Below, one piece after another: positions 1 through 63,777 of a stretch of 64,000 nucleotides of DNA (its first letter is position 1; each line of letters opens with the position of its first letter). The position numbers and the translations under genes were made by a program. Under the pieces are notes generated by a model. The model had not been told where the DNA came from. It did no database searches and saw nothing but the letters and a program-made list of their open reading frames with translations. Source of the DNA: Hippopus hippopus (lineage: Eukaryota > Mollusca > Bivalvia > Cardiida > Cardiidae); the NCBI GenBank assembly GCA_946811185.2, contig OX328109.1, forward strand, positions 34,332,129-34,396,128. Direction: 5' to 3'.

Positions 1-187
1 TCTATTTATATCAGCTTGGAAAATTCTAGATTAGTCTTTTCTAGAAAGATGACATCATCGATTAGTAAACAGCTTGTTTACCAACAATCTGTTTCTAAAA
101 ATAACCACAATGGAAAAACCAATAAATGATCTTCATGTTTCTAGAATATTCTGAAAACAGGTCACTGTATATCCTATCTATATAACA
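1..187 (-). repeat. 3' LTR of copy 1, first 187 bp only
   Basis: This is nearly identical to 4020-4203. It ends on the + strand in TAACA (183-187), the complement of the TGTTA that opens the LTR, and is cut by the window edge. Confidence 0.92.
139..151 (-). promoter_or_regulatory. Heat-shock-element-like site in LTR
   Basis: TTCTAGAATATTC, three alternating nGAAn/nTTCn units at exact 5-bp phase, the binding pattern of HSF. The same site is present in all four LTRs of the window. Confidence 0.55.
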
Positions 188-198
188 CTTCCCCTCCT
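188..198 (-). promoter_or_regulatory. Polypurine tract of copy 1
   Basis: Read on the minus strand this is AGGAGGGGAAG, directly beside the LTR start. It is the expected plus-strand DNA primer and corresponds to 63135-63145 in copy 2. Confidence 0.8.
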
Positions 199-375: not shown

Positions 376-1262
376 AAATGTTAATTTGGCTTTAGTCAGT
401 CTATCAAAAAATTCTGTGATAGTCTTTAGATGTTAATCCCAATCATCGCTGTGAATGATGACATCATCGATGTAGGCTCTACAGTCGTCCAATCCAGATA
501 TTATCATGTTGATAAGACATTTAAATGTTGCTGGCGAGTTTTTCATCCCAAAAGGCATAACTTTGTACTGATAAAGTCCATCAGGAGTTACAAATGCAGA
601 GATCTCTTTGGCCCTTTCATGAGAGGAATTTGCCAAAATCCTTTTAAAAGATCAAATTTAGTAATATATTTTGCATGACCAATATTGTCAATGCAGTCAT
701 CAACTCTTGTCACTGGAAACGAATCAGTCTTGGTCACAGTATTAACTTTTCTATAGTCAGTGCACATACGAAAAGTTCCATCTGGCTTTGGTACAAGAAT
801 ACAGGGAGAACTCCATTCACTTTGACTAGGTTGAATAAAGTCATTGTCCAATAGATACTTTATTTCCTCTCTAAGATGCTCCAGTTTCTTGGGATTCATT
901 CGATATGGATGTTGTTTCACTGGTTTTGAATTTTCAGTGTCCACATCATGGTATATTGTTTCTGTCCGTGTTGGAATATCAGGGAACAGGTGCTCATATT
1001 CAGAAATTAACTTTTTTAATTCATTTTTTTTATTATTATCTAAATGTGAAAGTTTTTGATCTAAATTTCTTAAAATGTCAGAATTCTGAAGTTTTGAACA
1101 AATAGGGTTAGACTTATCAAAGTTCATTTCTTCACAATTTATGTCTTCATGGTTATTTTGATTTTGAGGGACTGAGGAAACTACATTTATTGGCGAAATG
1201 TTTGAATCATCCCTATCAACATATTCTTTTAACATATTAATATGACATAATTGCTTTTGCTT
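376..1262 (-). pseudogene. Reverse transcriptase of copy 1, broken
   Basis: Gypsy-type RT: the SEWSSPCILVPKPDG, FRMCTDYRKVN, FDLLKGFWQIPL, MPFGMKNSPATF and AYIDDVIIH blocks are all readable, the last with the YxDD catalytic pair. The frame shifts near 620-636 (after WQIPL) and a stop follows at 433-435. The following RNase H is missing: sequence jumps from the end of the RT thumb region to the 3' untranslated part near 360. The start of this reading frame follows directly on the integrase GPY/F end (minus-strand CHINMLKEY), separated only by a TGA at 1265-1263. Confidence 0.92.
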
Positions 1263-1265
1263 TCA

Positions 1266-2250
1266 CCTGTCAGGAGTTCTTATCACATAATTTAAGTCAC
1301 TGACCTTTTTCTCTACGGAATAAGGACCAAAATATCTTGCTTGTAGAGGTCCACCAGGAATTGGTAATAGAGCTAAAACTTTATCTCCAGGTTTAAAATT
1401 TCTTTCTTTAGTATTCTTGTCATATCTTTCTTTCATTTTACATTGAATTTTCTTTCAATTTGATTTTGCAACCTCACAAGCTTTGAATAATCTGTTTCTA
1501 AAGTCAGATACATACTGAAGTAAATTTAAAGGAGAATCTTCTTGAGAAAGAAATGTTTCTTTTAAAAGTTTTAAAGGTCCACGAACTGTGTGACCAAAAA
1601 CAAGCTCAAAGGGACTAAAACCAAGAGATTCCTGTACAGTTTCCCTTACTGCAAAGAGTAATAGATGTATACCTTCATCCCAATCTTTTTGTGTGTCAAA
1701 GTAATATGACCTTTGAAGGTCTGATGTAACCGTTCAAGGGCACCTTGGCTTTCAGGATGATATACAGATGACCTATATTGTTTAATTCCCAACTCGTGCA
1801 TCACTTGTTGGAAAATGCAAGACATAAAATTTGACCCTTGATCAGATTGAACCGATTTAGGAAGTCCTACAAAAGTGAAAAATTTCACTAAAGCTTTGAC
1901 AATTGTTTTAGATTTTATATTTCTTAAAGGTATTGCTTCAGGAAAACGGGTGGAAGCACACATAACAGTCAAAAGGTACTCATTATCAGCCTTAGTTTTT
2001 GGCAATGGACCAACACAATCAATTATAATCCTGCTAAAAGGTTCATCAAATGCAGGGATCGGCTGTAGTTTAGCCTTAGGTATGACCTGGTTTGGTTTGC
2101 CTACCATTTGACAAGTATGACAAGACCTACAATAATCTGATACATCTGTTTTTAGACTAGGCCAATAAAAATGATTAAGAATTTTGTGATAGCTTTTATT
2201 GATAACTAAATGACCTGACATAGGCGTTTCATGAGCTAAGCTTAATATTC
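1266..2250 (-). pseudogene. Integrase of copy 1 (upstream of RT), broken
   Basis: Reading down from 2250: the zinc-binding segment (His of AHE and GHL, then CRSCHTC), followed by the DDE core with Asp in IIIDCVGPLP, Asp in QSDQGSNF and Glu in SQGALERLH. A GPY/F module follows (PGGPLQARYFGPYSVEKKV at about 1380-1300) and ends in CHINMLKEY. A frameshift near 2250 separates it from the protease linker, another near 1660-1680 breaks the core from its C-terminal part, and a stop lies in the connecting segment near 1455. Integrase inserts the cDNA copy into the host genome. Its place before RT is copia-like although its sequence is gypsy-like. Confidence 0.92.
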
Positions 2251-3238
2251 TGATCTATAAGATTTAGGAATGACGACTTGATGATTGACAACCCACTCAT
2301 CATCAACAGAGACTTCAGGAGGGTGCCACTTTCTCATTAATATGCCATTTTTTATATAAAAACAGACAGGTTCCTGTGAAAGATCAGTTTCACTGACAGC
2401 TTTTTGAAATAAAGGTGCAAATTCTGGATCATTGTGTTGGTCTTCACTTAGTTTTGACCTTGACCTTGTATCATGGTCTTCATTAACTAAGGGTGAATAT
2501 ATAGAATCAAATTCTAATGAATTATGTTTAGAATTTGTCTGACTTTCAGACGAGTTTTGTGAAATAGATCTGTTAACTTCATTTTTAGATAGATGACCCA
2601 ACAAAGAATCAGATAAGTCAATATAAGACTGATTTTCAGTCAAAATGGCTTTCTTTGCCATAGCTCTAGTAACTGCACATGATGGGTAAAGGTCAGGAAT
2701 TTCTTCCTCAATCGGATCGGGTGATTGATCCATGTAAGGTGTGTCAGTTACAAATGGATTAACAATTACCTTATCCCCGGCTAAATCATTGCCTAATAAC
2801 AAATGAACACCTTTAAAAGGTAAAATTTTTTTAATACAAACAGTCACTAGACAATTGATTAAGTCTGAAGACAAATAAATGTTATGAAGCGGAACATTAA
2901 CAAATCCACATTCTACACCCTGAATAAGGACACTTGTCCCAGAAGAAGTCTTCTCAGAAAAAAGCAGGACATCTGCTAAAATAAGAGACTGAGAAGCTCC
3001 AGTATCACGTAAAATTTAAATAGGGGTAGACTGGGCAAAATCACTTTTTAGTGACACAAAACCATCTGACAAGAATGGTTCATAAATCTCCATAGCAGTA
3101 TCAGTCTCAGGTACTTTGGCCTGGACAAAGGTTTGGTCTTTAAAACATGAATGGGGTGTAGACTTCAATGAAGTAAAGCCTGTAGGCTTAAAACTTTCTT
3201 GTTTTTCCCGTTTTCTTTTTAAAACAGGACATTCAGAG
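2251..3238 (-). pseudogene. Nucleocapsid tail, protease and linker of copy 1, broken
   Basis: This begins just after the zinc-knuckle position (KRKREKQE). It carries the retropepsin motif RDTGASQS near 3010-2990 and the flap-like LLLGNDLAGDKV near 2800, then a low-complexity Ser/Asn/Glu linker to the integrase. An in-frame TAA at 3018-3016 lies three codons before the catalytic Asp, so no active protease could be made from this copy. Confidence 0.88.
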
Positions 3239-3629: not shown

Positions 3630-4203
3630 TATTACGAGCCAAGCGTAACGAGAAAGAAAACCAGCAACAAGCCTTTAACAATTAACAATATTTATTAATG
3701 AACAAAGACAAAAAGAGTACAATAAGAGTTGAGTTTACATGAAATTTTGACAATTTTTAATCTTGGAACAAGATTAGAATAAGTCCCTCAAAATTAAGAA
3801 TTATGTTTAGATTACAAAAAGAATGAAATATCTGGTTCCTAAAACCTAAATTAACAATAGTTTAACTTGCAAGTAGATATGAGCAACCTGTTTAAATAAA
3901 AGAAAATTCCAACTTACAGATGTATATCCAAAGTTAAATCCAACACTTTTCACTAATTCTGTATCCACAAAGCCACAAGTCTAACTTCAAAATCCAAAAT
4001 CACCAAGTAAGTCATTTTTATTTATATCAGCTTGGAAAATTCTAGATTAGTCTTTTCTAGAAAGATGACATCATCGATTAGTAAACAGCTTGTTTACCAA
4101 CAACCTGTTTCTAAAAATAACCACAATGGAAAAACCAATAAATGATCCTCATGTTTCTAGAATATTCTGAAAACAGATCACTGTATATCCTATCTATATA
4201 ACA
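3630..4203 (-). repeat. 5' LTR of copy 1
   Basis: 574 bp. The minus-strand start is TGTTA (4203-4199) and the end TAATA, where TAACA is expected (one mutation). It aligns along its length with the LTRs at 58332 and 63146, including the heat-shock-like site (4155-4167) and a TATAAATA box near 4016-4028. Confidence 0.92.
4155..4167 (-). promoter_or_regulatory. Heat-shock-element-like site in 5' LTR
   Basis: TTCTAGAATATTC, alternating GAA/TTC units with 2-bp gaps, about 40 bp inside the LTR start. Confidence 0.55.
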
Positions 4204-5669: not shown

Positions 5670-5796
5670 AAATGGATTCTGCTGTGGTTTAATGCCTCTT
5701 TTTTTTTTTCTTTTGAAGGACGAATTAAAAACAACATGTAAATCCTGGCTCCCTGGGTTTTAAGAACTGTCTTTTTTTTTCTCGACAGTTTTAGGT

Positions 5797-5990
5797 ATAG
5801 TTGCGAAGGAGGTGAGCCTCGGCGTCACACAGAAGGTTCCTAGTTGGAATCCCGTAATAGGGGGGGGGGATCCAACCTAGGTAACTGTCCACAACAGGAA
5901 GCACGGACTGGTATGGTTTCTAGGAAGCAATCGTCGAGAATGACTGGCAAATGAAAAAAAAGCTGACATGTCCAAAGAGAAAGCATTTGC
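5797..5990 (+). repeat. Possible tRNA-derived SINE fragment
   Basis: TAGTTGCGAAGGAGG followed 35 bases later by GTTGGAATCCC resembles A and B boxes of RNA polymerase III. A related stretch lies at 18990-19160 (GAATCCCAAGTTGAGC.., TTTCTAGGAA). It contains a G run at 5862-5870. Confidence 0.35.
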
Positions 5991-6000
5991 AAGCGACATA

Positions 6001-6228
6001 TTAACCATTTACCAAACAATCCCTGGTTTTTACGAGCCAGAGGAAGAAGCCTTCCGAAAACATTGTGGGAAAAGGAGAAAATGCTGGTAACCAGCATTTT
6101 CTCCTTTTCCCGCAATGTTTTCTACTCTTCTAAAGTCAAGTTTCAATTTTTGAGTCACGTTTATTTTGTCGTCTGCAAATGCTTTCAATTTGGACAAGTC
6201 TAAATTTTTGTCATTTGGTAAAGAGTTA
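6001..6228 (+). repeat. Family C MITE
   Basis: Complete: TTAACCATTTACCAAAC to TTTGGTAAAGAGTTA with the intact AATGCTGGTAACCAGCATT hairpin. Confidence 0.85.
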
Positions 6229-6261
6229 CATGCGTTTCAGATAATGAGATATATGGCTTTA

Positions 6262-10901: not shown

Positions 10902-11720
10902 CAGATAGACAGACAGACAGAAAGATAGATTGATTGATTGATTGATTGATTGATCGATCGATTGGTTGATTAATTGATGCATTGATCAATTGATGCATGG
11001 ATGCATTGATTGATGCATTGATTCAATAATTGATGCATTGAATGATGCATGGTTACATTGATTGATTTATTGATACATTGATGGGTACATTGATTGATGC
11101 ATTTATTGATCCATGGATTGATTGATTGATTGATCGATCGATTGGTTGATTAATTGATGCATTGATCAATTGATGCATGGATGCATTGATTGATGCATTG
11201 ATTCAATGATTGATGCATTGAATGATGCATGGTTACATTGATTGATTTATTGATACATTGATGGGTACATTGATTGATGCATTTATTGATCCATGGATGC
11301 ATTGACTGATACACGTATACAATGATTGATACATTAATTGAAACATAATTACATTGATTAATTCATTGATTGATGCATCGATTGATGCATTGACTGATAC
11401 ACTGATTAGTGCACTGATTGATACACGGATTGATACATTGATTCAATGATTGATACATGGATACATTGATTGATATATTGATTGATACATTGATTAATTT
11501 ATTGACTGATGCATTGACTGACACAAAGATAGATCCACTGACTGATTAATTGATTGATACATTGATAGATACATCGATTGATTTATTGTTTGATACATTA
11601 TTGATAAACTGATTTATTGATTGTTTGAATGAGCCATTGATTGATTCATTGATTGAGGCATTGAATGGTGTATAGATTAACGCACTGAAGCACTGATTGA
11701 TGCATAGATTCATTATTTCG
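10779..11720. repeat. Degenerate (GATT/GATACATT)n array with a 180-bp duplication
   Basis: About 0.94 kb of GATTGATTGATGCATT-like units, including a pure (ATAG)n block at 10861-10903. Segment 10936-11115 is repeated almost unchanged at 11116-11298 (TGATCGATCGATTGGTTG at 10951 and 11131). Confidence 0.93.
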
Positions 11721-29887: not shown

Positions 29888-30722
29888 AAATCGTTTATGT
29901 AAGGTAGGGATAATCAAAATGACTTCCGGTTTAATTATAGAATGGGCGTTAAAACATTGTGTCAAGAGAAGAAATTGCTCGTTATGGACAATTCGAATTT
30001 ACATGGTAAAGCAGTCAGTAGTTTGGAGAAAGTGTTTTTCTAGTCCATTATATTAGCGACATATCTATGTACATGGCTTACGTTACATTACTGAGGTATG
30101 GCCATAGCCCTGTTTTAAACGCCATACACACGAACAAACTTGAAACAGTATTTCCTTTTTTAATAGTTTCAGGTCAGAAAGCTAGATCCAAAGCAAGGTA
30201 CCACTCATTGGCATTGAAAATAGTAGATGTTTCCAGCAATTTGAGGGAAAGACTAAACAGTTGATTTGGAATTCAGTAGGACATTCCACTCAGCAACATC
30301 CGAGACCGTTTTTGGAATATAAAGCAGGAAGATTGGGTGGTTTTTTTTTTTATTTCTCTCGCGTATTTTGTGATACTTAAACAAAGTATACTCACCAATA
30401 ATCTTAGGAAAATAAATTTGAAACTGTTTCGATGATTCCGACACATAATTATATAACTAGGATATATCCGATTGAAGAAAATCACGGAAACATAGGTAAA
30501 CTTTCCATTAGATTTCAAGTCATTGTAGTCTTTTGATACCTTGTTCGTTCAAGTTCGAAAATAGTGCTTCAGAGATTGTAATTCATGGTGCATGTAGATC
30601 TTACCGCGCGCTTATGTAGTAATTTATCGACTGAAAAACAGTGTAAAAAGGGAAACAGTAGATCTACATCATTATAAAAATCAGACTAAATAGCGAATGA
30701 AGAAATTTGCAACAGGGTAAAA
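29888..30722. other. Upstream region of the small secreted-protein gene
   Basis: No repeats recognised. ATTATAAAAAT at about 30671-30681, 40-50 bp before the ATG, could be a TATA box. No promoter can be proven from sequence. Confidence 0.35.
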
Positions 30723-31169
30723 ATGAACTTTCACCAGGTTTTACTTATTATGACCTCTGCCATAATAATTGGAGGGATTTCAGCTAGAAAGTCAGACAGA
30801 AGTACAAAAACAAGACACCGTGGAAAATCAAGAAAGAAAGACGATGTTACACAAGCATCTCTAGAGACATTGCATCATGATAAATTCGCGAATCAACGGA
30901 AGTTGCGTGTGGATGACGTCGTTAGTTTTGCTTGTCTACCAGAAAAGACTGACAGACTGGTTTACCGATTCGAGAACAAAACCCACGTATTCATCGGATT
31001 TGATAGGTTGGAAAGTAGGGAATTGAATGTGTTGACTTGGAAAATCAAGGATAAACGTGCTGGTACGTGGAAAATACTTTCTTTTTATACAAGCTATTTC
31101 ATAACTTCCTATGACAAAGGAGCCATTGAGATTTTCATAATCTCACCAAACATAAAAAAAAAAGACTGA
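30723..31169 (+). CDS. Small, probably secreted basic protein of unknown function
   Basis: 148 codons from ATG. Residues 1-21 form a good signal peptide (MNFHQVLLIMTSAIIIGGIS, then Ala-Arg), followed by a very basic stretch (KTRHRGKSRKKDD). About 100 residues with alternating hydrophobic/charged pattern follow, which could be a beta domain (SFACLPEK.., ENKTHVFIGFDR, with one NKT glycosylation site). I do not recognise the family. The frame ends in IKKKD just after a run of ten A at 31154-31163. One extra A would carry the frame on for about 20 residues (LNKAVITVEPKSKKRDKSN) to a TAA near 31223, which reads as a more natural end. The true end is therefore doubtful. Single exon as far as visible. 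Confidence 0.5.
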   Translation: MNFHQVLLIMTSAIIIGGISARKSDRSTKTRHRGKSRKKDDVTQASLETLHHDKFANQRKLRVDDVVSFACLPEKTDRLVYRFENKTHVFIGFDRLESRELNVLTWKIKDKRAGTWKILSFYTSYFITSYDKGAIEIFIISPNIKKKD

Positions 31170-39132: not shown

Positions 39133-39495
39133 CAGGCTCAGTGCAATCGGCAACCCGGTCTATATTTATGAGACCCGGCTCAGTGCAATCGGAAATCCGG
39201 TCTTTCTATTTATAGATCACGCTCAGCACAATCGGGAACCCAGTCTATATATTTATACATCAGGTTCAGTGCAATCGGGAATCCGATCTATATATTCATG
39301 AGACCGGGCTCATTGCAATCGGGAATCCGGTCTAAATATTTATAGATCAGGCTCAGATCAATCGGGAATCCGGTCTATATTTATGAGACTAGGTTCAGTG
39401 CAATCGGGAATCCGGTCTATATTTAAGAGACTAGGCTCATTGCAATCGAGAATGTGGGTCTATTTTTATTGGATCAGGCTCAGATCAATCGGGTT
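39133..39495. repeat. Minisatellite, ~50-60 bp unit, about seven copies
   Basis: Each unit has GGCTCAGTGCAATCGGGAAT, CCGGTCTATAT and TTTATGAGACC or TTTATAGATCA. Two unit types (GAGACC and GATCAG) roughly alternate, suggesting a higher-order dimer. Confidence 0.9.
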
Positions 39496-58327: not shown

Positions 58328-58331
58328 ACTG
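58328..58331. repeat. Target-site duplication ACTG (left)
   Basis: ACTG here equals 63774-63777 beyond the 3' LTR. Confidence 0.85.
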
Positions 58332-58965
58332 TGTTATGTAAATGGGATATACATGTAACCTGTTTTTGGTATCACTTTCACTCTATATACAGAATATTCT
58401 AGAAACATAAAGAACATTCATTGGTTTTTCCTTTGTGGTTATTTTTAGAAACAGGTTGTTCGTGAACAAGTTGTTTACCAATCCATGTCAATAAATAACT
58501 TGTTGTCATCTTTCTAGAAAGACTAATCTAGAATTTTCCAAGCTGATATACATGTAAATAGGAGTGACTTACTTGATGTATTTGGATTTTTGAACTTAGA
58601 CTTGTGGCTTTGAGGATACAGAATTAGTGAAAGTGTTGGATTTAAATCTATTCAATCGGAATATACAGTAGATCTGTAAGTTGGAATTATTTATTTCTTA
58701 AACAGGTTGCTCATATCTATTTGCAGATTAAAAACTATTGTTAATTTAGGTTTTAGGAACCAGAAATTTCATACTTTTTGTAGTCTAAACATAATTCTTA
58801 ATTTTGAGGGACTTATTCTATTTCTTGTTCTAAGATTAAAAATTGTCAAAATTTCATTCAAACTTAACTATTATTGTACTCTTTTGTCTTTATTCGTTAA
58901 AAAATATTGTTAATTGTAAAAGGCTTGTTGCTGGTTTTCTTTCTCGTTACGCTTGTTTTGTAACA
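58332..58965 (+). repeat. 5' LTR of copy 2
   Basis: 634 bp, TGTTA...TAACA. It differs from the 3' LTR by scattered substitutions and a small insertion in the TATA region (GATATACATGTAAATAGG at 58545-58562, against TATAAATAGG in the 3' LTR). Confidence 0.95.
58391..58405 (+). promoter_or_regulatory. Perfect heat-shock element in 5' LTR
   Basis: AGAATATTCTAGAAA: GAA-TTC-GAA with 2-bp gaps. Position relative to the LTR start is the same as in the other LTRs. Confidence 0.6.
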
Positions 58966-58970
58966 GAAAT

Positions 58971-58988
58971 TGGGGGCTCGTCCGGGAT
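58971..58988 (+). promoter_or_regulatory. Primer-binding site, tRNA-Pro type
   Basis: TGGGGGCTCGTCCGGGAT, five bases after the LTR. It is the complement expected for the 3' end of tRNA-Pro with CCA and is the same 18-mer known from proline-primed retroviruses. Confidence 0.88.
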
Positions 58989-59122
58989 TGATCATTTAGT
59001 CATTTTGGATATAATTTGAAATTATTTTGAACTTGTTACAGCATTAAAGTTTATTAGATAATAAAAAGAATAATAAAATAATAAAATTTAATTTTATTGT
59101 ACTGAACCAGCAAAAAGCAATT

Positions 59123-60299
59123 ATGTCTTTTGATCTTGAAAAATTTATTGCCGAGCCTTCTCAGGAGTTGTTAAATTTGGCAAAAAAGTCTGATTTATTA
59201 GATCTTGCTTCTCATTATAAACTGACTGCCATTAAAGGTACTATGTTAAAGCATGAAATTAAGAATTATATTGTTCAGTTTTTAGTTGATGAAGAAGTAC
59301 TTGACTCGTCTGCTCTGTATTTCTTTCTTGTGTCTCAGACAGACGTTAAAATTAATATTGAGTTAGAAAAATTAAAACTACAGATAGAAAAAGAAGAAAG
59401 AATGAAAGAAAAAGAATTAGAAAAAGAAAAAAATGTATGCTGAATTAGAAGAAAGTGAGAAGGATAGGCAATTTCAGTCGAGAATGAAAGAAATAGAAAA
59501 TAAAGAAAAACCATATTTGCATGTGATTAATGATTTTGACATAACAAAACAGCTCAGTCTTGTTCCACCATTTCAAGAACAGGAAGTGGATAAATACTTT
59601 TCATATTCTGAAAGATTTACCGAAAATTTGAAATGGCCAAAAGAACACTGGACCTTACTCTTGCAAAGCGTTGTAACTGGAAAGGCTCACGATAATTTTT
59701 CTCAGCTAAATAATGAACACCTTTCTAATTATGATAATGTTAAGGAATTGATTCTAAAGGCTTATGAATTGGTACCTGAAGCATATAGACAAAAATTTAG
59801 GAATTGCAGAACAGAAAATTGTAAAACCCGTGTTGAATTTGCTAGAACTAAAGAACAATTATTTGATAGGTGGTGCCATTCAAAGAAAATAGATTCAGAT
59901 CATAGAAAACTTAGACTATTATTGTTAGTTGAAGAATTTAAAAGGTGCATTAATTCAGATATAAAAACTTTCTTAGATTAGAAAGAAGTTGAAACTTTAG
60001 AAGAAGCTGCTTGCCTAGCAGACAACTTTGCCTTGACGCATATGGTCTCTTTCATAAATAAATCAAACCCTCGAAAGCCTTTTTATTCATCTACTGGTCC
60101 TAAACCAAATTTTAATCAACATAATGACAATTCCAATCAGAATAATCCCAAACCCAAGTCCCCTTATGAAGCCAAAGGTCAAAATCCCTTATCTCGACCC
60201 ACTTGTAATTATTGCAAAGAATCAGGTCATATTATTTCTGAATGTCCTGTTTTAAAAAGAAAACGGGAAAAACAAGAAGGTCATAAGCCTACAGGCCTT
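59123..60299 (+). pseudogene. gag of copy 2, SCAN-like capsid and zinc knuckle, broken
   Basis: Starts ATG-SFDLEKF. N-terminal segment LLDLASHYKLTAIKGTMLKH resembles a SAP-like helix pair. A Lys/Glu-rich coiled coil follows (59345-59435), then the capsid region: VDKYFSYSERFTENLKWP, VTGKAHDNFSQL, AYELVPEAYRQKFRNC, EFARTKEQLFDRWC, EEFKRC, ACLADNFALTH, block for block like the vertebrate SCAN domain. The nucleocapsid knuckle is CNYCKESGHIISEC (60204-60245). A one-base frameshift in the A-rich run near 59420-59435 and an in-frame TAG at 59979-59981 break it. Gag appears to continue in frame into the protease. Confidence 0.92.
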
Positions 60300-61217
60300 A
60301 CTTCATTACAGTCTACACCTCAGTCATGTTTTAAAGACCAAACCTTTGTCCAGACCAAAGTACCTGAGACTAATACTGTTATGGAGATCTATGAACCATT
60401 CTTATCAGATGGTTTTGTGTCACTAGAAAGTGATTTTGCCCAGTCTACCCCTATTAAAATTTTACGTGATACTGGAGCTTCTCAATCTCTTATTTTAGCA
60501 GATGTCCTGCCTTTTTCTGAGAAGACTTCTTTTGGGAGAAGTGTCCTCATTCAGGGTGTAGAATGTGGATTTGTTAATGTTCCGCTTCATAACAATTATT
60601 TGTCTTCAGACTTAATTAATGGTCCAGTGACTGTTGGTATTAGAAAAAAATTACCTTTTAAAGGTGTTCATTTGTTATTAGGCAATGATTTAGCCGGAGA
60701 TAAGGTAATTGTTAATCCACTTGTAACTGACACACCTTGCATGGATCAAGCACCCGATCCAATTGAAGAAGAAATTCCTGACCTTTACCCGTCATGTGCA
60801 GTTACTAGAGCTATTTTGACTGAAAATCAGTCTGATATTGACTTATCTGATTCTTTTTTGGATCATTTATTTAAAAATGAAATTAACAGGTCTATTTCAC
60901 AAAACCCGTCTGAAAGTCAGACAAATTCTAAACATAATTCATCAGAATTTGATTATATATCTTCACCCTTAGTTAATGAAGGCCATGATACAAGGTCAAG
61001 GTCAAAACTAAGTGAAGACCAACACAGTGATGCAGAATTTGCACCTTTATTTCAAAAAGCTGTCAGTGAAACTGATCTTTCACAAGAACCTGTCTGTTTT
61101 TATATAAAAAATGGAATATTAATGAGAAAGTGGCGCCCTCCTGAAGTCTCTGTTGATGATGAGTGGGCTGTCAATCATCAAGTCGTCGTTCCTAAATCTA
61201 AAAGATCAGATATATTA
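60300..61217 (+). pseudogene. Aspartic protease and linker of copy 2
   Basis: Part of the open frame 60033-61409. The retropepsin active site DTGA lies at 60468-60479 (RDTGASQSLI) and a flap/second-half motif LLLGNDLAGDKV at about 60675. It is followed by a ~130-residue Ser/Asp/Glu linker. The protease itself looks intact here, unlike copy 1, but the upstream stop prevents its normal expression. Confidence 0.88.
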
Positions 61218-61379
61218 AGCTTAGCTCATGAAACACCTATGTCAGGTCATTTAGGTATCAATAAAACCTATCACAAAATTCTTAATCATTTTTATTGGCC
61301 TGGTCTAAAAGCAGATGTATCAGATTATTGTAGGTCTTGTCATAAGAGAAAAAAAGAAGAAGAAAAAAAAAAAAAAAGT
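61218..61379 (+). pseudogene. Integrase N-terminal remnant of copy 2
   Basis: His of LAHE and GHL and the CRSC pair of the zinc-binding domain are present. At CHK (61341-61346) the sequence breaks into an A/G-rich run (61344-61376) and rejoins at the end of the GPY/F module. The whole DDE core, about 0.8 kb in copy 1, is missing. Confidence 0.9.
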
Positions 61380-61413
61380 CACCGACTTAAATTATGTGAT
61401 AACAACTGACAGG

Positions 61414-61416
61414 TGA
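61414..61416 (+). other. In-frame TGA between integrase and RT
   Basis: Context GACAGG-TGA-AAGCAA, 30 bases before the RT ATG and in its frame. The same codon and context occur at 1265-1263 (-) in copy 1. Confidence 0.9.
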
Positions 61417-62320
61417 AAGCAAAAGCAACTATGTCATATTAATATGTTAAAAGAATATGTTGATAGGGATAATTCAAGTATTTCACCAATAAATGTAGTT
61501 TCCTCAGTCCCTCAAAATCAAAATGACATTAACCATGAAGACATAAATTGTGAAGAAATGAACTTTGATAAGTCTAACCCTATTTGTTCAAAACTCCAGA
61601 ATTCTGACATTTTAAGAAATTTAGATAAAAAACTTTTACATTTGGATAATAATCAAAAAGATGAATTAAAAAAGTTAATTTCTGAATATGAGCACTTATT
61701 CCCTGATATTCCAACACGGACAGATACAATATACCATGATGCGGACATTGAAAATTCAAAACCAGTGAAACAACATCCATATCGAATGAATCCCAAGAAA
61801 CTGGAGCATCTTAGAGAGGAAATCAAGTATCTATTGGACGATGACTTTATTGAACCTAGTCAAAGTGAATGGAGTTCTCCCTGTATTTTTGTACCAACGC
61901 CAGATGGAACTTTTCGTATGTGCACTGATTGTAGAAAAGTTAATACTGTGGCCAAGACTGATTCGTTTCCAGTGCCAAGAGTGGATGACTACATTGACAA
62001 TATTGGTCATGCAAAATATGTAACCAAATTTGATCTTCTAAAAGGATTTTGGGAAATTCCTCTCACTGAAAGAGCTAAAGAGATCTCTGCATTTGTAACT
62101 CCTGATGGACTTTATCAGTACAAAGTGATGCCTTTTAGGATGAAAAACTCGCCGGCAACATTTCAACGTCTTATCAACATGATAATATCTGGATTGGACG
62201 ACTGTAGGGCCTACATCGATGACATCATCATTCACAGCAATGATTGGGATGAACATCTAAAGACTATCAGAGAATTTTTTGACAGACTGAGTAAAGCCAA
62301 ATTAACAATTAACTTGTTAA
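61417..62320 (+). pseudogene. Reverse transcriptase of copy 2
   Basis: Open from ATG 61444. The integrase terminus CHINMLKEY leads directly into the RT region. Blocks: SEWSSPCIFVPTPDG, FRMCTDCRKVN, TKFDLLKGFWEIPL (first catalytic Asp), MPFRMKNSPATFQRL, YIDD at 62212-62223. The frame is lost at an A run near 62322 (AAC-TTG-TTA-AAA-GTG), where the normal reading continues as SEFCHASLSFLGHVV. The usual Gly of MPFG is Arg here. RT copies the element's RNA into DNA. Confidence 0.92.
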
Positions 62321-63014
62321 AAGTGAATTTTGTCATGCTAGTTTATCATTTTTGGGTCATGTTGTTGGACAAGGACAGGTAAAACCCGTAGAAGATAAAG
62401 TAAAAGCTATTTCTGATTTTCCTGTACCTACATGCAAAAGACAACTTATGAGATTTCTTGGTATAGCTGGTTACTACAGAAAATTCTGTGGTAATTTTTC
62501 TGTCATTGCTGAGCCACTGACAAGTCTTCTCAGCAAACGCAAAAAATTTATATGGAATGATGATTGTCAAAAAGCTTTCGATAAAGTAAAAGCCATACTA
62601 AAAAGTGAACCAGTTCTTTTAGCTCCTAATTTTGAAAAAGAATTTAAGCTTGCAGTAGATGCTAGTGATACTGGTGCAGGTGGTGTTTTACTTCAAGAAG
62701 ATTGTAATGGTTTAGATCATCCAGTTAGTTATTTTTCTAAAAAGTTTAACAAACATCAGAAAAACTACTCAACAATAGAAAAAGAGTGTTTATCTCTAAT
62801 TCTTGCTCTTCAGCATTTCGAAATATATTTGTCGTCTTCTCCTGTACCCATCATTGTATATAGTGATCATAATCCTCTGATTTTTAACCATAAAATAAAA
62901 AACAAGAATCAGCGTTTACTCAGATGGAGTCTGTTTTTACAAGAGTATAACATGGATATCAGACACATAAAAGGTAGGGATAATATTATCCCTGATGCTT
63001 TGTCTAGAGTTTAA
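62321..63014 (+). pseudogene. RT connection and RNase H of copy 2
   Basis: Frame 62352-63014 reads through FLGIAGYYRKFCGNFSVIAE and the RNase H domain. AVDASDTGAGGVL (Asp at 62658), STIEKECLSL (Glu near 62778), YSDHNPL (Asp at 62865) and IPDALSRV mark the acidic residues. It stops right after DALSRV, with no integrase behind it, and about 130 bp of untranslated sequence lead to the polypurine tract. RNase H removes the RNA strand during reverse transcription. Confidence 0.92.
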
Positions 63015-63134
63015 CTTGTAAATAGTTAACATTTGTCTTTATGTATAATGTATTTTCATGCACATTTATGTGTAATGATATTTTCTATCTTCAAACAAAA
63101 GAAAGTTTTACTTCTTAAAACTTTCTTTTCCTTT

Positions 63135-63145
63135 AGGAAGGGAAG
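63135..63145 (+). promoter_or_regulatory. Polypurine tract of copy 2
   Basis: AGGAAGGGAAG immediately before the 3' LTR. Confidence 0.9.
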
Positions 63146-63204
63146 TGTTATGTAAATGGGATTTACATGTAACCTGTTTTCGGTATCACTTTCACTCTAT
63201 ATAC

Positions 63205-63219
63205 AGAATATTCTAGAAA
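63205..63219 (+). promoter_or_regulatory. Perfect heat-shock element in 3' LTR
   Basis: AGAATATTCTAGAAA, followed seven bases later by another GAATATTC (63226-63233). Confidence 0.6.
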
Positions 63220-63360
63220 CATAAAGAATATTCTTTGGTTTTTCCATTGTGGTTAATTTTAGAAACAGGTTGTTAGTAAACAAGTTGTTTACCAATCCAT
63301 GTCAATAAATAACTTGTTGTCATCTTTCTAGAAAGACTAATCTAGAATTTTCCAAGCTAA

Positions 63361-63370
63361 TATAAATAGG
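63361..63370 (+). promoter_or_regulatory. TATA box of the LTR
   Basis: TATAAATAGG, conserved as TATAAATAAA in copy 1. The 5' LTR of this copy carries a changed version. Confidence 0.6.
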
Positions 63371-63773
63371 AGTGACTTACTTGATGTATTTGGATTTTTG
63401 AACTTAGACTTGTGGCTTTGAGGATACAGAATTAGTGAAAGTGTTGGATTTAAATCTATTCAATCAGAATATACAGTAGATCTGTAAATTGGAATTATTT
63501 ATTTCTTAAACAGGTTGCTCATATCTATTTGCAAATTAAAAACTGTTGTTAATTTAGGTTTTAGGAACCAGAAATTTCATACTTTTTGTAGTCTAAACAT
63601 AATTCTTAATTTTGAGGGACTTATTCTATTTCTTGTTCTAAGATTAAAAATTGTCAAAATTTCATTCAAACTTAACTGTTATTGTACTCTTTTGTCTTTA
63701 TTCATTAATAAATATTGTTAATTGTGAAAGGCTTGTTGCTGGTTTTCTTTCTCGTTACGCTTGTCTCGTAACA

Positions 63774-63777
63774 ACTG
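63774..63777. repeat. Target-site duplication ACTG (right)
   Basis: Equals 58328-58331. Confidence 0.85.

What the first reader, a model, noticed from the sequence alone, without database searches (positions are those of the whole stretch)
58332..63773. Gypsy-type retrotransposon with copia-type gene order (integrase before reverse transcriptase)
In both copies the integrase zinc domain follows the protease linker. In copy 1 the whole integrase, ending in GPY/F and CHINMLKEY, runs straight into RT. RNase H ends at DALSRV with no integrase after it. All domains read as Ty3/gypsy, not Ty1/copia. This order in gypsy-like elements is known for the Gmr1 group, first described from deuterostomes; a copy in what looks like a mollusc would widen its range.
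Basis: partly seen in the sequence, partly recalled or inferred. Interest (0 to 1): 0.82.

Follow-up and report, generated by a model that had tools for sequence, protein, structure and literature searches.

The report
Gmr1-type retrotransposon, integrase before polymerase
An invertebrate genome, probably a bivalve's, carries many copies of a Ty3/gypsy-type jumping element whose integrase lies before its reverse transcriptase, as in the known Gmr1 group; it is a new member of a known kind, possibly in an animal phylum where it was not yet reported.

Summary
Copy 2 (58332-63773) has LTRs, a 4-bp target duplication, primer site, polypurine tract and the order gag, protease, integrase zinc domain, RT, RNase H; 131 bases later comes the 3' LTR. 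Copy 1 (minus strand) has the whole integrase running into RT. This is the family's normal layout: integrase parts precede RT in 20 of 20 copies examined and in 10 of 10 scanned relatives. Gag matches SCAN in 7 of 7 copies scanned, a mark of Gmr elements in print. So it is Gmr1-type; a tree with named Gmr1 sequences could not be made. Gmr1-type elements are already published from crustaceans and an annelid. The 2018 mollusc survey names no Gmr1 clade among its finds in the passages I saw, so a mollusc would be new to me; the host looks bivalve-like (at least 150 C1q domains) but is unproven. Both window copies are defective, and some copies elsewhere share deletion junctions in integrase or RNase H.

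The parts
58328..58331 (+). target-site duplication ACTG, left
   Evidence: identical to 63774-63777
58332..58965 (+). copy 2, 5' LTR, 634 bp
58971..58988 (+). copy 2, primer binding site TGGGGGCTCGTCCGGGAT (tRNA-Pro type, label recalled)
   Evidence: present intact or with small changes in 7 of 7 other copies measured
59123..59443 (+). copy 2, N-terminal gag region
   Evidence: shared with copy 1
59433..59981 (+). copy 2, gag capsid; SCAN match at about 59775-59972
   Evidence: Pfam SCAN E 2e-6, 27.9 bits vs cut-off 27
60201..60248 (+). copy 2, CCHC zinc knuckle (below curated cut-off)
   Evidence: Pfam zf-CCHC E 0.0011
60468..60482 (+). copy 2, protease active-site motif DTGAS
   Evidence: motif read directly
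61188..61346 (+). copy 2, integrase zinc-binding domain; core deleted downstream
   Evidence: Pfam Integrase_H2C2 E 2.8e-19
61378..61443 (+). copy 2, remnant of the integrase C-terminal region up to CHIN
   Evidence: tblastn with P0002
61444..62382 (+). copy 2, frame starting MLKEY, with reverse transcriptase
   Evidence: Pfam RVT_1 E 5.8e-28; PDB Ty3 RT E 1.4e-41
62352..63014 (+). copy 2, end of RT and RNase H, ending DALSRV
   Evidence: Pfam RT_RNaseH E 3.3e-34
63135..63145 (+). copy 2, polypurine tract AGGAAGGGAAG
63146..63773 (+). copy 2, 3' LTR, 628 bp
63774..63777 (+). target-site duplication ACTG, right
3632..4203 (-). copy 1, 5' LTR (approximate)
   Evidence: L029 positions 1672-2243 converted
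2242..3015 (-). copy 1, protease and linker
1646..2254 (-). copy 1, integrase zinc domain and core
   Evidence: Pfam H2C2 9.1e-14, rve 5.3e-13
1262..1712 (-). copy 1, integrase C-terminal region with GPY/F, two stops
   Evidence: tblastn with P0002
364..1262 (-). copy 1, reverse transcriptase, frameshifted; no RNase H follows
1..189 (-). copy 1, start of 3' LTR (approximate), continuing beyond the window
   Evidence: L029 positions 5686-6232 converted

Best explanation
Two defective copies of a multicopy Gmr1-type Ty3/gypsy LTR retrotransposon family. Shown: LTRs, 4-bp target duplication, primer site, polypurine tract, gag and pol in one frame in some other copies, SCAN-like capsid, protease, integrase with zinc, core and GPY/F domains, then RT and RNase H before the 3' LTR. 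Inferred: it moves by the ordinary LTR-retrotransposon cycle (transcription from the LTR, capsid assembly, tRNA-primed reverse transcription, integrase-made 4-bp staggered insertion). Having integrase before RT changes the order of parts in the polyprotein, not the enzymes used. Copies without integrase core or RNase H presumably move with enzymes from fuller copies.
For: Integrase parts before RT in 20 of 20 copies; RNase H after RT in 11 of 11 copies that have it, with an LTR next downstream. Relatives from other genomes: 10 of 10 chosen for a Pfam scan have integrase parts N-terminal to RT; 8 of 240 proteins hold both motifs, integrase first in 8 of 8. RT's best solved match is Ty3, E 1.4e-41. 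SCAN in 7 of 7 gags scanned and in 87 of the 120 listed gag relatives (my count). In the capped lists, 0 of 150 SCAN hits lie within 3 kb of any of 70 ordinary Retrotrans_gag hits, and 55 pairs of a SCAN hit with a protease-linker hit downstream were found. Gag, linker and integrase hits carry the same open-frame length (970 aa) at C14:41314343-41316334. Exact 4-bp duplication in window copy 2 and in 5 of 7 others.
Against: No named Gmr1 sequence was on hand, so clade membership of RT and integrase is untested. The relative search only takes proteins of 0.55-1.75 times the query length, so RT-first proteins are less likely to show both domains. The window copy's SCAN score is just over the cut-off (27.9 vs 27), though other places in the genome reach 52 bits; of the seven gags, 2 also match Retrotrans_gag and 4 match Epsilon_antitox, a bacterial family, presumably by chance. 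A gag profile found no SCAN chain in the PDB at E up to 10. The gag structure model was poor (pLDDT 62) and had no significant PDB match. The integrase's best solved match is foamy virus integrase, ahead of Ty3.
Confidence: 0.9

Rival explanations
1. An ordinary gypsy element (integrase last) in which the integrase was moved forward by a local rearrangement shared by these two related copies.
For: Both window copies are related and damaged.
Against: The 20 copies examined, on 16 contigs, have the same order, with an LTR next downstream of RNase H in the 11 that have RNase H. Ten scanned relatives, 53-79% identical to the window RT, share the order.
Confidence: 0.03
2. A true Ty1/copia element or a copia/gypsy hybrid.
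For: The domain order is the copia one.
Against: RT, RNase H and integrase match gypsy-type or retroviral-type models and chains, and no copia-type RT model was reported.
Confidence: 0.01
3. A separate gypsy lineage that gained the copia-type order independently of Gmr1.
For: No named Gmr1 reference was available; RT and integrase were compared only with mostly unnamed relatives and PDB chains.
Against: The SCAN-like capsid, reported from Gmr elements only in a frog survey, is shared.
Confidence: 0.07

Closest known systems
Gmr1 group of Ty3/gypsy retrotransposons (Gadus morhua Gmr1; tetraodontiform Gmr1-Gmr4; crustacean GyRex4/GyRex5; annelid LGF3)
   Same: Integrase before RT, gypsy-type domains, SCAN in gag as in frog Gmr elements (PMC4131045, passages), one gag-pol product and 6.1-6.5 kb consensus length in tetraodontiform fish (PMC11117352, passages).
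   Different: Host is an invertebrate with bivalve-like features; LTRs of about 600 bp here against 337-518 bp in those fish; direct sequence comparison with named members not done.
Ty3 and ordinary gypsy clades (Mag, CsRN1, C-clade)
   Same: RT, RNase H and integrase families; Ty3 RT is the best solved relative of the RT.
   Different: Integrase follows RNase H there (general knowledge); in this genome the listed SCAN hits and ordinary Retrotrans_gag hits do not coincide.
Ty1/copia
   Same: Order of integrase and RT.
   Different: Domain families; no copia-type match reported.

Membership tests
Gmr1 group | integrase upstream of RT in an otherwise gypsy-type pol | tested here: met
Gmr1 group | gypsy-type RT, RNase H and integrase | tested here: met
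   (integrase's best solved match is foamy virus, then Ty3)
Gmr1 group | SCAN-like capsid in gag (published for frog Gmr elements and as origin of the SCAN domain) | tested here: met
   Pfam; not seen against PDB sequences; papers, passages
Gmr1 group | gag and pol in one frame, as in tetraodontiform Gmr1-Gmr4 | tested here: met
   same open-frame length given for gag, linker and integrase hits at C14:41314343-41316334 (970 aa) and C18:14643471-14645468 (938 aa), and for gag and linker at C10:53904604-53906055 (1252 aa); paper, passages
Gmr1 group | RT and integrase group with named Gmr1 sequences in a tree | not testable with these tools
   no named Gmr1 or gypsy-clade reference was obtained; ordinary gypsies of this genome could not be fetched
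Ordinary gypsy (integrase last) | integrase after RNase H | tested here: not met
Ty1/copia | copia-type RT family | tested here: not met

The most novel reading that the evidence does not exclude
SCAN-capsid, integrase-first gypsy elements are an old and common lineage across invertebrates, reaching bivalves and octocorals, so the source of the vertebrate SCAN domain is far older and wider than the vertebrate literature suggests. An integrase 77% identical to a protein labelled as octocoral would then point to movement between host phyla. Within this host, deletion forms lacking integrase or RNase H spread by recombination between co-packaged RNAs.
Probability: 0.25. Interest if true: 0.55.

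Novelty: new member of a known kind. Interest (0 to 1): 0.35.

Why it matters
It adds an abundant invertebrate family, with SCAN-like gag preserved in many copies, to a small and unusual group. If the host is a mollusc, it adds a phylum whose 2018 survey did not name the group among its finds in the passages I saw. It also supplies many sequences with which to date the SCAN-type capsid.

Tried and rejected
The rearrangement reading was tested on 20 copies and on relatives and rejected. That the shared integrase deletion is a spliced intron was considered and rejected: the shared junction is a 4-base ATTT microhomology with no GT at the left end. That integrase-less copies form one lineage was tested on the upstream region (21 rows). 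The tree is star-like, with 2 well-supported of 18 inner branches. The five copies need 5 changes, at least 2 of them forced by the supported branches, and are no more clustered than shuffled labels. Recombination or repeated deletion therefore remains open. In the flanks compared, no two copies that share a junction match each other; some other pairs match through what look like dispersed repeats (upstream flanks of L030 and L035 not compared).

Led nowhere: scans of viral and prokaryote contigs for relatives (none confirmed); gag against PDB sequences (no SCAN chain); gag structure model and fold search; Rfam on the window (0 matches); the mollusc haemocyanin family in the genome (0 hits, and the control rang nowhere, so absence is not shown); a paper search by phrase (0 papers). 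Whole-genome searches with the integrase and RVT_1 families or the RNase H protein did not complete, so a genome-wide tally of gene order was not made.
Full report
What is there. The finding's coordinates are exact. Copy 2 has LTRs at 58332-58965 and 63146-63773, both TGTTATG...GTAACA, with ACTG duplicated on both sides. A primer site TGGGGGCTCGTCCGGGAT follows the 5' LTR after five bases (tRNA-Pro type, a label I recall), and a polypurine tract precedes the 3' LTR. In between lie gag (SCAN match E 2e-6), a weak zinc knuckle, DTGAS, the integrase zinc domain, RT and RNase H. RNase H ends at 63014, and 131 bases separate it from the 3' LTR. The integrase core is deleted from this copy; an A-rich stretch marks the junction.

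Copy 1 lies on the minus strand. Its protease linker (2242-3015), integrase zinc domain and core (1646-2254), integrase C-terminal region with GPYSVEKK and CHINMLKEY (about 1712-1262) and RT (from about 1262 down) follow each other, with a frameshift and two stops in the integrase. RNase H and most of gag are missing. With the fetched stretch L029 its LTRs lie at about 4203-3632 and from 189 beyond the window start.

Is the order normal for the family? Yes, as far as examined. The window is part of a 1.07-Gb genome in 34 contigs. A protease-linker query found 494 candidates, of which 150 were scored and all 150 matched; an integrase query found 2067 candidates, 150 scored and matched. These are lower bounds and include the window's own copies. 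I fetched 20 copies: window copy 1 and 19 others chosen by hand from the upper half of the protease-linker list. In 20 of 20, integrase parts lie between protease linker and RT; in six of them (L030, L039, L041, L043, L046 and, in part, L036) integrase sequence is shortened. RNase H follows RT in 11 of 11 copies that have it and is missing in 9. In those 11 an LTR match is next downstream, further away in L034 and L037, which hold extra sequence. No integrase match follows RNase H within the stretches examined.

In other genomes, 10 of 10 relatives that I chose for a Pfam scan, because integrase domains or motifs had been seen in them, have integrase core or C-terminal domain before RT (P0110 and P0111 look like near-duplicates). 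Of 240 relatives hold both an integrase and an RT motif, integrase first in 8 of 8; another pair of motifs on 360 proteins found 3, also integrase first. The search's length limit makes RT-first proteins harder to see.

What it is. RT and RNase H match gypsy-type models and the best solved RT is Ty3; the integrase's best solved matches are foamy virus integrase and then Ty3. Gag matches SCAN in 7 of 7 copies scanned; Retrotrans_gag matches 2 of 7 and a bacterial antitoxin family 4 of 7, both weakly. Of the 120 listed gag relatives, 87 carry a SCAN label by my count and 33 carry none. In this genome 150 of 411 SCAN candidates were scored, all 150 over the curated cut-off. None of these 150 lies within 3 kb of any of the 70 ordinary Retrotrans_gag hits, and 55 pairs of a SCAN hit with a protease-linker hit downstream on the same strand were found; all three lists are capped. 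Against PDB sequences the gag profile found no SCAN chain.

Published passages: SCAN was found "in over 50% of Gmr elements only" in frogs (PMC4131045), and SCAN resembles the gag capsid C-terminus of Gmr1-like elements (PMC4592553). Tetraodontiform Gmr elements have one gag-pol product and 6.1-6.5 kb consensus length (PMC11117352). Here gag, linker and integrase hits carry the same open-frame length (970 and 938 aa) at two places, and gag and linker hits the same length (1252 aa) at a third. Of seven copies measured, six are 5.3-6.5 kb long and one is 6.8 kb; LTR divergence is 0.010-0.044, and the 4-bp duplication is exact in 5 of 7.

Membership. The Gmr1 features that could be tested are met. 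The tree with named references was not possible, so I say Gmr1-type with confidence 0.9 rather than a placed Gmr1 clade member. An integrase tree of the window and 42 of the 120 listed relatives puts the window integrase with unnamed proteins, apart from the Paramuricea-labelled one (quick method, 6 well-supported of 40 inner branches).

Host and range. The genome has at least 150 C1q domains, many in tandem clusters (150 scored of 266 candidates), which from general knowledge is typical of bivalves. Mollusc haemocyanin gave no hit, with a control that could not ring. Bivalve is an inference. Gmr1-like elements are published from crustaceans as the first in protostomes (PMC3587641, passages) and from the annelid Lamellibrachia (PMC8220671, passages); a second annelid paper notes that clade as one not found in its own analysis (PMC8556966, passages). 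The 2018 mollusc survey names the Gmr1 clade in its background but, in the passages I saw, not among the known gypsy clades it found in molluscs (PMC6238403). It also lists 16 new MolGy clades, and I cannot exclude that one of them is Gmr1-like. Paper searches listed no later report of Gmr1 in molluscs by title or abstract start; this covers only the open-licence library.

Mechanism. Shown: the parts and their order. Inferred: the standard LTR-retrotransposon cycle. Deleted forms: five of the 20 copies (L030, L039, L041, L043, L046) share one ATTT-microhomology junction that removes the integrase core, some with further nested deletions. L029, L030, L032 and L035 share an RNase H deletion, and L046 and L048 share another, whose right end L038 also has. 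In the flanks compared, no two copies that share a junction match each other. In the upstream region the integrase-less copies are scattered, though the tree is weak. Spread of deleted forms with help from fuller copies, with recombination, is the likeliest reading but is not proven.

Noticed in passing
G000 C11:33820734-33854327, C7:13892521-13909503 and other places (outside the window): A second SCAN-gag family in the same genome, many hits in open frames of about 1435 aa, some in tandem arrays with periods of about 5555 and 5573 bases. Its domain order was not read.
   Followed up: no
L030, L039, L041, L043, L046 (integrase); L029, L030, L032, L035 and L046, L048 (RNase H): Copies at different genomic places share exact deletion junctions that remove the integrase core or RNase H, suggesting that defective forms multiply.
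   Followed up: partly
window 10924-11664: Array of GATTGATT-type repeats with a 180-base higher-order unit at 97% match.
   Followed up: no
window 4309-54809, many places: Many dispersed repeats in both orientations lie between the two element copies: 24 direct-repeat families and 107 inverted pairs were found over the whole window, the element copies included.
   Followed up: no
window 39133-39493: Tandem array of a 43-base unit, 8.4 copies.
   Followed up: no
window 30690-31169, + strand: Open frame of 159 aa with what looks like a signal-peptide-like start; no Pfam match.
   Followed up: partly
P0132: An integrase relative (81% identity) sits on a 1966-base contig labelled Campylobacter, possibly animal DNA in a bacterial assembly.
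   Followed up: no
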